DNA of 64,000 nucleotides from Rivularia sp. T60_A2020_040 (GTDB taxonomy: Bacteria > Cyanobacteriota > Cyanobacteriia > Cyanobacteriales > Nostocaceae), in NCBI GenBank assembly GCA_015272215.1, contig JACYMD010000128.1, positions 86,287 to 150,286 of the forward strand, given 5' to 3'. The notes below the pieces were generated by a model. It searched no databases. It saw only the letters and a list, made by a program, of their open reading frames with translations, and was not told the DNA's origin. Shown here piece by piece: positions 8,016 through 52,394 of this stretch (the stretch's first letter is position 1; each line of letters opens with the position of its first letter). The position numbers and the translations under genes were made by a program.

Positions 8016-8096
8016 AAATAGTTCGGATATCAAATTTTTATTTGCTGTTGTTAGCTGCTACAAGTATAGTCGTAGCTAATAATTTGTACTGCGTAA

Positions 8097-8205
8097 TTAC
8101 TCCCATTCCGCTTTAAGATTACCTATCTCTTTTTACCTCTTTCCTCTGCGCTCTCTGCGTCTCTGCGGTTTTTTAATCGGTAATCTTCTACTGGAAAGGG
8201 AGTAA
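8097..8205. mobile_element. MITE-like element with about 27-bp imperfect TIRs
   Basis: TTACTCCCATTCCGCTTTAAGATTACC at the left; the right end, reverse-complemented, is TTACTCCCTTTCCAGTAGAAGATTACC; core CCTCTGCGCTCTCTGCGTCTCTGCGGTTTTTT. Confidence 0.85.
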
Positions 8206-13225: not shown

Positions 13226-13345
13226 TTGCTCGCTTTCTGTGGAAGATTACTGATAAAAAAAACCCTTCTAGACGCAGAGAAGGCAGAGGAATGAGAAGAA
13301 GAGAGATGAATCGCACCAACAAGGGTGAAAGGTAGATCGGGGATT
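13226..13345. mobile_element. MITE-like element, reverse orientation, degenerate
   Basis: TTGCTCGCTTTCTGTGGAAGATTACTGATAAAAAAAACCC...GACGCAGAGAAGGCAGAGGAATGAGAAG...GGATTACC aligns with the reverse complement of 8097-8205; begins at the rfbC stop codon. Right boundary approximate. Confidence 0.68.
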
Positions 13346-32714: not shown

Positions 32715-33016
32715 TGACTTACCTCAAGCATTAAATATTACTTTTAAAACATTCAATATAATCATTGTCAAGATAATTCGATAACATTATCTTCAATAAT
32801 ATTTATTTGTTAAAATAATATTTATATCCATATTTTTGTATTTTAAATATTAATTATTAATCTAAAAGAACAACTATATTATTAATTATTTATTTGGCAT
32901 AAGCAAGTATAAAATAGTTTTTAAATAACCGAAATTGAGAATAGATAAATATTGAATTTAAATCTATTTTCATAGACATAAGCATTAATATCTCTATTTT
33001 TAAACAGTTATTATTC

Positions 33017-33122
33017 CCCACCCAATTTATAAGTACTTTTCTCTCCTAATCTCTTCCTTCTGTGTACGAGCGCCTCTGGAAGCTTTTTTAATCAGTAATC
33101 TTTTACTGAAAACCGAGTAATC
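33017..33122. mobile_element. Degenerate MITE-like copy upstream of bchH
   Basis: ctcctaatctcttccttctgtgtacgagcgcctctggaagcttttttaatcagtaatcttttactgaaaaccgagtaa. Boundaries approximate. Confidence 0.5.
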
Positions 33123-33185: not shown

Positions 33186-36100
33186 ATGAAGCGCATTGTC
33201 TTGATTGCAGGATTTGAATCTTTCAATGCTGGTTTGTACCGCAAAGCTGCTGATATGGCTGTATCTTGCTGTTCCGATTTGGATATTCGGATATTGTGCG
33301 ATAGCGATATCAACAGCAAACCAAGTACAGTGGAAACAGCACTTGAAGATGCTGATGTGTTTTTTGGTAGTTTGCTATTCGATTACGACCAAGTTGTATG
33401 GTTAAAGCAACGAGTCAGCAAGATTCCCATTCGTTTGGTGTTCGAGTCAGCTTTGGAATTGATGAGTTGTAATCAAATTGGTGCATTTGCAATTGGTGAC
33501 AAACCCAAAGGAATGCCTAAACCAGTAAAATTTATCTTAGATAAATTCAGCAATGGAAGGGAAGAAGATAAACTTGCTGGTTATATTAGTTTTTTAAAAA
33601 TTGGTCCGAAATTATTAAAATATATCCCAGTACAAAAGGTTCAAGATTTACGCAACTGGTTGATTATTTACGGTTATTGGAATGCTGGTGGTTGCGAAAA
33701 TGTCGCTGCACTATTTTGGACTTTAGCAGAAAAATATTTAGATTTAAAAGTTGGTGATATTCCCCCACCTTTGGAAACTCCAAATATGGGATTGCTTCAT
33801 CCTGATTACAATGGTTATTTTGAATCACCGAAAGCTTATTTAGATTGGTACAAAAAAAGAATTGAACATATTTATAATCCAGTAATTGGAATTCTTTTGT
33901 ATCGAAAACACGTTATTACTAAACAACCTTATATTCCTCAATTAATTAAACACTTTGAAAAAGCTGGTTTAATTCCCTTACCCATATTTATCAATGGTGT
34001 AGAAGCACACGTTGCTGTTCGTGATTGGATGACTACAGATTACGAAACCCAACAACGTCAACAAGGTAATTTGCAAACTGTTTCTCTTTCCCCAGAAGCA
34101 GTTCAAGTTGATGCAATTGTTTCTACTATTGGATTTCCTTTGGTAGGAGGGCCAGCGGGTTCTATGGAAGCAGGAAGACAAGTTGATGTTGCAAAAACCA
34201 TTCTCGCTGCTAAAAATGTACCTTATATTGTTGCCGCACCGCTGTTAATTCAAGATATTCACTCTTGGACTCGTCAAGGTATTGGCGGTTTACAAAGTGT
34301 TGTTTTATATGCATTACCGGAACTTGATGGGGCTATCGATACAGTTGCTTTGGGTGGTTTGGTAGGAGAAGATATTTACTTGGTTCCCGAAAGGGTACAG
34401 CGATTAATTGGTAGGGTAAAAAGTTGGGTAAATTTACGAGAAAAACCTGTATCCGAGCGCAAAATTGCTGTTATTCTCTACGGTTTTCCACCGGGATACG
34501 GTGCAACGGGAACTGCTGCTTTATTGAATGTTCCCCGCAGTTTATTGAAGTTTCTCCAGGCTTTAAAAGAGCAAGGTTATAACGTGGGAGAATTGCCCGC
34601 AGATGGGGAAGAATTAATTCGTTTAGTCAAAGAAGCCGATGAATTATTCCCCCAAAAAAATGTAGAGACGCAAGGGTTCGCGTCTGTAAATAAGGAAAAC
34701 ACGGTTAATGTGAGAACGTTGCAAAAATGGTTAGGATATCTCCAAACAACCCGCGTTGAAAAACAGTGGAAATCTCTGACGGGTTCTGGTATCAAAACTT
34801 ATGGTGATAATTTTCAGATTGGCGGGATTCAATTAGGTAATGTTTGGATAGGAGTTCAGCCACCGTTAGGGATTCAAGGAGATCCGATGCGGTTGATGTT
34901 TGAACGAGATTTAACGCCACATCCTCAGTATGTAGCTTATTATAAGTGGTTGCAAAATGAGTTTGCTGCTGATGCACTAGTTCATTTTGGAATGCACGGT
35001 ACTGTGGAATGGTTGCCCGGTTCTCCCTTGGGTAATACTGGTTATTCTTGGTCTGATATTTTACTCGGAGATTTACCGAATCTGTATATATATGCAGCGA
35101 ATAATCCTTCGGAGTCGATTTTGGCAAAGCGTCGCGGTTATGGAGTGTTGATTTCTCATAATGTACCTCCTTACGGTCGTGCGGGTTTGTATAAGCAGTT
35201 AATGGCTTTGCGGGATTTAATCTCGGAGTATCGGGAAGATCCCCAGAAGAATTATTTGCTTAAGGAAGGGATTTGTAAACAGATTATTGATGCTGGTTTG
35301 GATGCTGATTGTCCGTTTGCGGAAGCGAGGAAGTTGGGAATTGAGTTTACCGTTGAGAATATCGCAATGTTTAGCGATCGCGCTTTTAATGATTATTTGG
35401 TGAAGTTGTATGAGTATTTACAGGTTTTGGAGAATCGGTTGTTTTCTTCGGGGTTACATATTTTGGGGCAGGCTCCGGATGAGGAGGAGATGAGGTGTTA
35501 TTTGGATGCTTATTTTGGCAAGGAGGAGCAAGAAAATCAACCGCAGAGGCGCGGAGAACGCAGAGAAGGAGAGGAGGAGGAAGTTAGGGGTTTGTTGGCA
35601 CAGAGTACGGATGAGTTGAGTAGTTTGTTACGGGGTTTGAATGGTGAGTATATTTTACCTGCACCAGGGGGAGATTTGTTACGGGATGGTGCTGGTGTGT
35701 TACCTACGGGTAGGAATATTCATGCTTTAGATCCCTATCGAATGCCTTCTCCTGCTGCTTATGAACGGGGAAGGGAGGTTGGAAGGAAGATTATTCAGCA
35801 GCATTTGCAAGATAATGGGAGTTATCCGGAGACGGTGGCTGTAATGTTATGGGGCTTGGATGCAATTAAGACTAAGGGTGAATCTTTGGGTATTTTGTTG
35901 GAGTTAGTAGGTGCGGAACCTTTGAAGGAAGGAACGGGTAGAATTGTTCGTTATCAATTGAAAGCTTTAGGGGAAGTTGGACATCCCCGCATTGATATTT
36001 TGGGTAATCTTTCAGGAATTTTTCGCGATAGTTTTGTGAATATTATTGAGTTATTGGATGATTTATTTCAACGTGCTGCGGAATTGGATGAACCTTTAGA

Positions 36101-48702: not shown

Positions 48703-50376
48703 TCAAAAATCCAAAACATCAAGAGATTCTTCAATTTCCAAATCTAAAATTCTTTCTCTAGTATTTTTATGTTCTTGTACTTTACCATGACTTTGATATA
48801 AATCGGCTGCTATACGAAAATCAGCAATTGCACCTGGGATATCTCCTAATTCATCACGTATTTTACCGCGATTAATATAAACATCTGCATCCTGAGAATT
48901 TATTTTAATTGCTTGAGTATAATCTTTGATTGCTTCAGGTTTATTTCCTAATTGATAAAAAGCATTTCCCCTTTCAACATAAACATCCGCATCATCAGGA
49001 TTAATCTGAATAGAAGAAGTAAAATCTTCAATTGCTTTCAAATAATCTCCCAAATCACAATGTGCGTTACCGCGTTTTTTATAACCAACTGCATCCGAAG
49101 GACTAATTTCAATTACTTGAGTAAAAACTTCAATAGCTCGTTGGTAATTTTCCCACTCATCTGTTGTAGAATTAGCCTTGAGATTAGAATTACTCCTATC
49201 CCCATCTAAAATTACCAATCTCTCTTTAGCTCTTTCCTCAGCGTTCTTTGCGTCTCTGCGGTTTTTATTTCCGCAATCTTCTACCGAAAGGGGATTAATT
49301 TTTCTGGCTTGAGTATAATCTTCAATTGCACCTTGACTATCACCAATTATAGAACGTACATCACCACGGTTTTTAAAAACTAGGGCATTATAAGAATTAA
49401 TTCTAATTGCTTGGGTATAATCTTCAATAGCTCCATAATAATCTGCTAATTGATATCGCGCTAATCCACTTTTTATATAAGCATTGGCAAAATTGGGATT
49501 GATATTGATTGCTTGAATATAATCTATGATTGCTTGAGTATAATCCTTTAAATAATAATAAACATTAGCGCGTTTATAATAAGTATTAGCATCGCTATCG
49601 CAAATTTTTAAGGCTTGACTATAATTCTCAATCGCAGCATTATAAAGTTGTTTTTCAACAGATTCATCACCCTGTTGAATGTAAAGTTGATTTGAATTAT
49701 CTTCAATTTTTACTTGAGGTTTATTAAATAATTGTTGCTGAGGATAAATATTCGGAGAAAGATAATTAGTAGAAGCCTTTAATTGTTCCAAATAATAGCG
49801 CAATCCACCACCATAAAACAACTGTTCAATCCCAAAAGAGATTTTCCCAGTCTTCAATTTAATCATTTCAGTTGGTAAAAATCCAGCCAAAACCAAATGA
49901 TATTCAGATTGCGCTTCATTTACCTCTTCTTGAATCAAAACGCAAACAATAACCGCATTTTTTTGCACCTCATCAACAGAAACCGACCATAAAACCCGAT
50001 TAAAATTACCGTGACGAGATTTAACTTCAATCCCAATTAAAGGATTATTAGTTAAGGTAAAATCAATATTACCATCACCACCAAAGCGTTTTTCATAATC
50101 GACTTCAGTAATAAAATCAGCCAACCTTTCCTTAACAACTTCCTCACCCAACTTTCCCTTGAGATAGCTAATAAAAACATCGCGCACTGAAGAAACGCGC
50201 TTGTATTTTTCAGCCATCACCCAGCAAAAGTCTCGTAATTGTTTTAACCTTTCTCCAGAGATCACACTTAATTCACTGTATTGACCAACACGTTCACAAT
50301 GCAGCAAACAACCATCAGCCAAACGCTTGATAAAATCAGATTGTAAATTTCGCAGTACGTTACTCCAATCCATCAA
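48703..50376 (-). CDS. PD-(D/E)XK-like nuclease domain fused to TPR repeats
   Basis: N-terminal GKLGEEVVKERL...GGDGNIDFTLTNNPLIGIEVKSRHG (D...ExK core); C-terminal multiple TPRs. Confidence 0.78.
   Translation of the reverse strand: MMDWSNVLRNLQSDFIKRLADGCLLHCERVGQYSELSVISGERLKQLRDFCWVMAEKYKRVSSVRDVFISYLKGKLGEEVVKERLADFITEVDYEKRFGGDGNIDFTLTNNPLIGIEVKSRHGNFNRVLWSVSVDEVQKNAVIVCVLIQEEVNEAQSEYHLVLAGFLPTEMIKLKTGKISFGIEQLFYGGGLRYYLEQLKASTNYLSPNIYPQQQLFNKPQVKIEDNSNQLYIQQGDESVEKQLYNAAIENYSQALKICDSDANTYYKRANVYYYLKDYTQAIIDYIQAININPNFANAYIKSGLARYQLADYYGAIEDYTQAIRINSYNALVFKNRGDVRSIIGDSQGAIEDYTQARKINPLSVEDCGNKNRRDAKNAEERAKERLVILDGDRSNSNLKANSTTDEWENYQRAIEVFTQVIEISPSDAVGYKKRGNAHCDLGDYLKAIEDFTSSIQINPDDADVYVERGNAFYQLGNKPEAIKDYTQAIKINSQDADVYINRGKIRDELGDIPGAIADFRIAADLYQSHGKVQEHKNTRERILDLEIEESLDVLDF
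49189..49299. mobile_element. MITE-like element inserted in frame within the TPR gene
   Basis: TIR-like ends ATTACTCCTATCCCCATCTAAAATTACC / (rc) ATTAATCCCCTTTCGGTAGAAGATTGC around the core CTCTTTCCTCAGCGTTCTTTGCGTCTCTGCGGTTTTT; same architecture as 8097-8205 and 52285-52393. Confidence 0.82.
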
Positions 50377-52216: not shown

Positions 52217-52284
52217 TTGTATGAGAATTTTTGTGAAATGGTATTAAATGCATATTCCTCGACACGAGCATTCACTATGTGAGC

Positions 52285-52393
52285 TACTCCTATCCCGCTG
52301 GAAAATTACCTATTTCGATGAAACCTCTTTCCTCTGCGTACTCTGCGTCTCTGCGGTTTTTTTAACCAGTAATCTTCTGCCGGGAAGGGAGTA
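52285..52393. mobile_element. MITE-like element (TIR-bearing, CTCTGCGTCTCTGCGG core)
   Basis: TACTCCTATCCCGCTGGAAAATTACC...CCTCTTTCCTCTGCGTACTCTGCGTCTCTGCGG...AGTAATCTTCTGCCGGGAAGGGAGTA. Confidence 0.83.
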
Positions 52394-52394
52394 A

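What the first reader, a model, noticed from the sequence alone, without database searches (positions are those of the whole stretch)
49189..49299. Full-length MITE-like element translated in frame inside a nuclease-TPR gene
An approximately 111-bp element with both TIR-like ends and the CTCTGCGTCTCTGCGG core lies inside the TPR array of the 48703-50376 gene. Its length is divisible by three and it is stop-free in that frame, adding about 37 residues (INPLSVEDCGNKNRRDAKNAEERAKERLVILDGDRSN) between TPR units. The same element occurs in several intergenic sites in this window, so this is a direct example of a mobile repeat being domesticated as protein sequence.
Basis: seen in the sequence. Interest (0 to 1): 0.72.

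Follow-up and report, generated by a model that had tools for sequence, protein, structure and literature searches.

The report
Mobile DNA repeat translated inside genes
In one group of filamentous cyanobacteria, a 111-base mobile DNA repeat has jumped many times into genes, including an essential one, without breaking them, because it can be read through as 37 extra amino acids; similar elements are known mainly from Rickettsia, but here the insertion footprints can be seen directly.

Summary
In detail: window 49189-49299 (minus strand) is a 111-bp MITE copy read in frame inside the TPR array of a 557-aa gene. It is not unique. About 65 well-preserved copies exist in this 6.0-Mb Nostocales genome. 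Eighteen clear ones lie inside long ORFs, all in the same orientation and reading frame (…EDY.NKNRRDAENAEERGKERLVILDRDRSN). Hosts include glyS (single copy), menE, menF, cobN, sfsA and an Ntn-type acylase. Close relatives supply empty sites for eight insertions. All fit insertion at a TA (six keep the TA exactly), adding 105 bp, or 132 bp with a nested in-frame repeat. Coding copies form one subfamily: 37 of 42 copies on one side of a three-genome tree are coding, against 2 of 78 on the other, where the consensus carries stops. Inserts evolve under relaxed constraint (dN/dS 0.57 versus 0.22 in flanks). In the window protein the insert is the only low-confidence stretch inside the modelled TPR domain. 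Best reading: a TA-targeting MITE subfamily with a built-in, stop-free hydrophilic ORF that proteins tolerate, comparable to Rickettsia palindromic elements; tolerated rather than shown to be functionally domesticated. No transposase partner was found and translation was not tested.

The parts
48703..50376 (-). Host gene: 557-aa protein, N-terminal nuclease-like region plus C-terminal TPR array; the likely start is the ATG at 50371-50373 (invariant Met2 in orthologues)
   Evidence: TPR families E to 8e-47; 31 orthologues
49189..49299 (-). In-frame MITE copy, 37 codons, coding subfamily
   Evidence: tree
49272..49299 (-). 5' (in gene sense) terminal repeat, worn (ATTAATCCCCTTTCGGTAGAAGATTGCG)
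   Evidence: 16 of 28 positions match the other end
49189..49216 (-). 3' (in gene sense) terminal repeat (GGTAATTTTAGATGGGGATAGGAGTAAT)
49246..49261 (+). Core CTTTGCGTCTCTGCGG, one mismatch from the 16-bp core; read on the minus strand as codons for ..NRRDA..
8095..8205 (-). Copy of the intergenic subfamily (carries a frame-0 TAG)
52283..52394 (-). Copy of the intergenic subfamily
33011..33120 (-). Diverged copy (E 1.6e-10)
13227..13308 (+). Diverged partial copy (E 5.6e-10)
35537..35565 (+). Core fragment only (E 5e-4)

Best explanation
The feature is a copy of a small non-autonomous transposon (MITE) that inserts at TA dinucleotides. One subfamily has no stop codon in one sense frame; that frame encodes a 37-residue, charged, helix- or coil-forming peptide. 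With the TA duplication it adds a multiple of three bases, so when it lands in the right orientation on a TA split across two codons (xxT-Axx) the host gene stays open and gains a hydrophilic loop. Copies landing otherwise break the gene and are lost. Shown: repeat family, empty sites with TA, frame and orientation uniformity, presence in single-copy glyS, retention across related genomes, relaxed constraint. Inferred: translation of the insert, normal function of host proteins, movement by an IS630/mariner-type transposase supplied in trans.
For: About 65 copies of at least 70 nt, 18 clear ones in long ORFs, all in one sense frame. Empty sites in close relatives: acylase, cobN, menE, DsbA-like, menF and a G001-only gene keep the TA; sfsA and a G001 VIT-domain gene read AA instead. 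Frames +1 and +2 of the consensus carry stops. Hosts are recognisable families: GlyS (E 1e-236), SfsA, MenE, isochorismate synthase, CobN, penicillin amidase, DUF1800, DUF1822, OprB, OmpA. glyS has one full copy in the genome and it carries the insert. The ten orthologous insert pairs used for dN/dS stay open. AlphaFold model of the window protein: residues 365-405 below pLDDT 50, between TPR repeats mostly above 90.
Against: No autonomous transposase with these ends was found: the DDE_3 loci lack the TIR, though two are cut short, apparently by contig ends. Pure survivorship predicts at most about 35% of the stop-free subfamily in genes (window TA counts), yet 17 of 19 are, so chance landing plus selection is not the whole story. 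One orthologue in the SL_2_1 MAG (L280) has gained a one-base change of length and a stop inside the insert. No transcript or proteome data.
Confidence: 0.88

Rival explanations
1. The inserts are functionally domesticated: the peptide now does something useful (linker, interaction or regulatory site) and is kept by selection on its sequence.
For: Conserved centre NKNRRDAENAEERGKERLVIL across unrelated hosts; dN/dS below 1 among orthologous inserts (0.57) and pN/pS 0.65 among paralogous copies; retained in the window gene in two other genomes.
Against: Constraint much weaker than in flanks (0.22); hosts share no function; inserts carry further insertions; recent shared origin explains similarity; dN/dS below 1 rests on few differences (20.5 synonymous, 48.5 nonsynonymous).
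Confidence: 0.12
2. The coding subfamily moves preferentially into genes (for example transcription-coupled or strand-oriented targeting) rather than merely surviving there. (This refines, and does not exclude, the best explanation.)
For: 37 of 42 copies on the stop-free side are coding, 2 of 78 on the other side; 17 of 19 in own genome against an upper expectation of 35%, binomial p about 1e-6; four own-genome insertions with the nested repeat, all empty in relatives, are all in genes.
Against: No mechanism known; the five non-coding copies on that side show it can sit elsewhere; intergenic copies may erode faster or be overwritten by exchange with the abundant other subfamily; the expectation assumes equal target use and independence.
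Confidence: 0.2
3. The repeat is an RNA-level or translational intervening sequence (spliced out or bypassed), not protein.
For: Terminal inverted repeats could pair; the intergenic form folds well (z -4.9).
Against: Coding copies fold weakly (z -1.6 to -1.8), and they keep an open frame and a multiple-of-three length, which an excised sequence would not need; no splicing signature is known for such an element.
Confidence: 0.02
4. Assembly or gene-calling artefact.
For: Genomes are drafts and one is a MAG.
Against: Same junctions in independent assemblies of different organisms, clean empty sites elsewhere, open frames of up to about 1,500 codons through the insert.
Confidence: 0.01

Closest known systems
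Rickettsia palindromic elements (RPE; Ogata et al. 2000, 2002, as summarised in PMC2229807 and PMC10969869)
   Same: About 105-150 bp repeats with terminal inverted repeats, found both between genes and in frame inside many unrelated, often conserved genes; each encodes a recurring peptide; one host protein (Gmk) is translated and active.
   Different: Different phylum, and sequence homology was not tested; target-site duplication is listed as unknown for RPE (PMC2229807, Table 1) while here TA empty sites are seen; coding and intergenic copies here fall into separate subfamilies; nested in-frame repeats occur within the inserts.
Neisseria Correia/NEMIS elements, 107-bp versus 155-bp forms (PMC2229807)
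   Same: One related form has open frames and is found fused to ORFs, the other has stops and is almost only intergenic, which is the same split as seen here; TA at the ends.
   Different: Different organism and sequence; forms differ by length, here mainly by point differences.
RUP of Streptococcus pneumoniae (PMC2229807)
   Same: 107-bp MITE, TA-type ends, IS630-type mobilisation proposed.
   Different: Stops in all six frames and intergenic only; a matching IS is known there, none found here.
Cyanobacterial small repeats and MITEs (Nezha; small dispersed repeats of Elhai et al. 2008; MITEs of Anabaena PCC 7120, Wolk et al. 2010)
   Same: Small dispersed elements in cyanobacterial genomes; the review PMC10969869 lists Anabaena MITEb and MITEe among MITEs carrying ORFs.
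   Different: The primary papers of Elhai and Wolk were not held and Nezha was not compared, so sequence identity with any of those families was not tested.

Membership tests
MITE (TA-type) | Short, without its own transposase gene, many dispersed copies | tested here: met
   111 bp (138 with nested repeat), about 65 copies of at least 70 nt
MITE (TA-type) | Terminal inverted repeats | tested here: met
   21-23 of 28 terminal positions match in subfamily consensuses; only 16 of 28 in the window copy
MITE (TA-type) | Target-site duplication shown by empty sites | tested here: met
   eight empty sites, six with exact TA, two with AA; not demonstrable for the window copy
MITE (TA-type) | Autonomous relative with the same ends | tested here: inconclusive
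   three DDE_3 (IS630-type) loci over the cut-off lack the TIR, two of them truncated loci
RPE-like protein-coding repeat | In-frame insertion into several unrelated genes | tested here: met
   18 clear in own genome, further ones in G001
RPE-like protein-coding repeat | One favoured reading frame | tested here: met
   all sense copies in frame 0; one antisense exception in a ModB-ModC fusion
RPE-like protein-coding repeat | Host protein translated with insert and active | not testable with these tools
   only indirect: single-copy glyS carries it
RPE proper (Rickettsia families) | Sequence homology to the RPE families | not tested
   RPE sequences were not at hand; no Pfam family matches the peptide

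The most novel reading that the evidence does not exclude
The coding subfamily is an element adapted to live inside proteins: selection on the element itself has favoured a stop-free, hydrophilic frame and a multiple-of-three length, so that it accumulates in genes as its main habitat while its stop-carrying sister accumulates between genes.
Probability: 0.35. Interest if true: 0.8.

Novelty: new member of a known kind. Interest (0 to 1): 0.62.

Why it matters
How protein-coding repeats such as RPE get into genes without breaking them has been hard to study because their mobility footprint was unknown. Here several insertions have empty sites at around 90% flank identity, the footprint (TA) is visible, coding and intergenic subfamilies sit side by side in one genome, and hosts include a single-copy aminoacyl-tRNA synthetase and enzymes with simple assays. 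This makes a ready system for asking how proteins gain insertions of 35-45 residues.

Tried and rejected
Transposase partner: DDE_3 loci and the exact TIR pattern gave no autonomous element. Structure of SfsA with the insert: the alignment was too shallow, model unusable (pLDDT 32). RNA hairpin as the selected feature of coding copies: z only -1.6 to -1.8. A strictly gene-only subfamily: rejected, five non-coding copies fall on that side of the three-genome tree. Clean empty site for the window gene: NIES-267 and Rivularia MS3 carry an unrelated or eroded linker of similar length, other Nostocales a shorter one. Primary papers of Ogata, Elhai and Wolk were not held, so prior description in cyanobacteria cannot be excluded.

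Full report
Observation. The 48703-50376 ORF (minus strand) encodes 557 residues with a TPR array. Residues at window 49189-49299 are a copy of a dispersed repeat. The core recurs in the window four times against 0.01 expected. The stated coordinates, length and reading frame are correct; the terminal repeats of this copy are worn.

Genome-wide picture. The window lies in a 6.02-Mb draft genome (139 contigs). A DNA search found over 40 copies, and a profile search over fetched loci raised this to about 65 copies of at least 70 nt. A search with the 37-residue peptide showed many copies inside long open frames. I count 18 clear in-frame cases: the window TPR protein, glyS, menE, menF, cobN, sfsA, an Ntn/penicillin-amidase-type acylase, a DsbA-like protein, DUF1800, DUF1822, an OprB-type porin, an OmpA/beta-helix protein, a large membrane protein and five proteins without a clear family. 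Two more look like eroded insertions, in a nuclease-like and a mannosidase-like protein (these two names are my reading of the sequence, not a search result). One copy is read antisense, in the linker of a ModB-ModC fusion (name likewise by reading). All sense copies use the same frame. In the coding consensus the other two sense frames contain stops. The antisense frames are hydrophobic, and one of them is open in the B1 intergenic consensus, yet only one antisense case was found, which fits tolerance of a hydrophilic rather than a hydrophobic insert (inference).

Insertion footprint. The filled sites read TA-CTCCC...GGAG-TA and the empty ones TA in six cases (acylase, cobN, menE, DsbA-like, menF, and a gene filled only in G001). 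In sfsA and a VIT-domain gene the empty allele has AA. Net gain is 105 bp, or 132 bp when a 27-bp repeat (RSRSVSLQGE-type) is nested in frame. Other nested repeats occur in LEGE 06105 (SEKCGLG...), in own L052 and in the G001 sfsA. Some insertions are shared between genomes and some are private, so in-frame insertion has happened repeatedly and in part recently.

Subfamilies. In the own genome, 17 of 18 coding copies lie on one side of a branch. Over three genomes one side has 37 coding and 5 non-coding copies, the other 76 non-coding (counting the antisense case) and 2 coding. Support on single branches is modest because only 111 columns exist, but shuffled labels never come close. The other side carries frame-0 stops in consensus (AGATAGG where the coding form has AGATTGG), while other differences (VILDRDR versus VIFQRDR or VILKRNR) are not needed for an open frame, so this is a lineage difference and not only removal of stops (inference). 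Window TA counts give a 35% upper expectation for the coding share if every in-phase coding insertion survived; 17 of 19 were found. This excess is not explained. Targeting, faster loss between genes, and exchange with the other subfamily are all open.

Selection and structure. Pooled over ten orthologous insert pairs, dN/dS is 0.57 in inserts and 0.22 in the rest of the proteins. The sample is small and block changes inside inserts may distort it. The AlphaFold model of the window protein gives confident TPR repeats (mostly above 90) and a single low-confidence gap at 365-405, which is the insert; the N-terminal half was also modelled poorly. Single-copy glyS with the insert implies that at least this host must work with it, if translated.

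Distribution. Within a 31-genome set of relatives, matches at E below 1e-7 occur only in four genomes of the same genus: three carry open-frame copies, the fourth a single stop-containing copy. Of 293 genomes across the order, none but the own genome matched the peptide at 1e-6; two genomes of another family have 77-79% similar DNA, one copy each reported. Sampling was even but not complete. Among named records, Richelia sp. SL_2_1 and Plectonema cf. radiosum LEGE 06105 carry the insert in the orthologue of the window gene; of the 16 other orthologues aligned, 14 lack it and NIES-267 and Rivularia MS3 carry an unrelated or eroded linker of similar length.

Known kinds. The behaviour matches Rickettsia palindromic elements and the open-frame form of Neisseria Correia elements (PMC2229807, PMC10969869). 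I file it as a new member of that kind. What is additional here is the visible TA footprint, the clear split of coding and non-coding subfamilies in one genome, and nested in-frame repeats. The key cyanobacterial repeat papers could not be read, so priority is uncertain.

Noticed in passing
L003, L005, L010, L018, L020, L025, L029 (and others): A second small repeat (CGTTCGCGCAGCGTCTCCCTCCAGGGAGAA) is nested at the same point of many element copies; coding copies keep a length that preserves the frame, several intergenic ones (CTCCCCCAGGGAG) do not.
   Followed up: partly
L033 versus L137; L034 versus L280; copies such as L210, L215: Inside otherwise similar copies, short blocks are swapped (CGCAGAGACGC / CCCTTCTAGACGC / CCTTACTAGACGC; GCAGAG / GCTCTT), also between orthologous inserts; perhaps exchange between copies.
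   Followed up: no
L194 (own genome C40:14486-14615): An element copy in antisense orientation is read in frame in the linker between the ModB and ModC parts of what looks like a fused molybdate transporter protein.
   Followed up: partly
L201 (C16:21489) and L202 (C53:101195): Short, eroded in-frame remnants (EKNRRDAEGAEERNEE; EINRRGAEYAEEEGKER) in a nuclease-like and a mannosidase-like protein, suggesting older insertions.
   Followed up: partly
L183:329-1273 (-): The sfsA insert of G001 holds a further in-frame palindromic repeat of about 45 bp.
   Followed up: no
window 48703-50376: N-terminal half of the host protein (GGDGNIDF...GIEVKSR) looks like a PD-(D/E)XK nuclease but has no significant Pfam match; conserved across Nostocales.
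   Followed up: no
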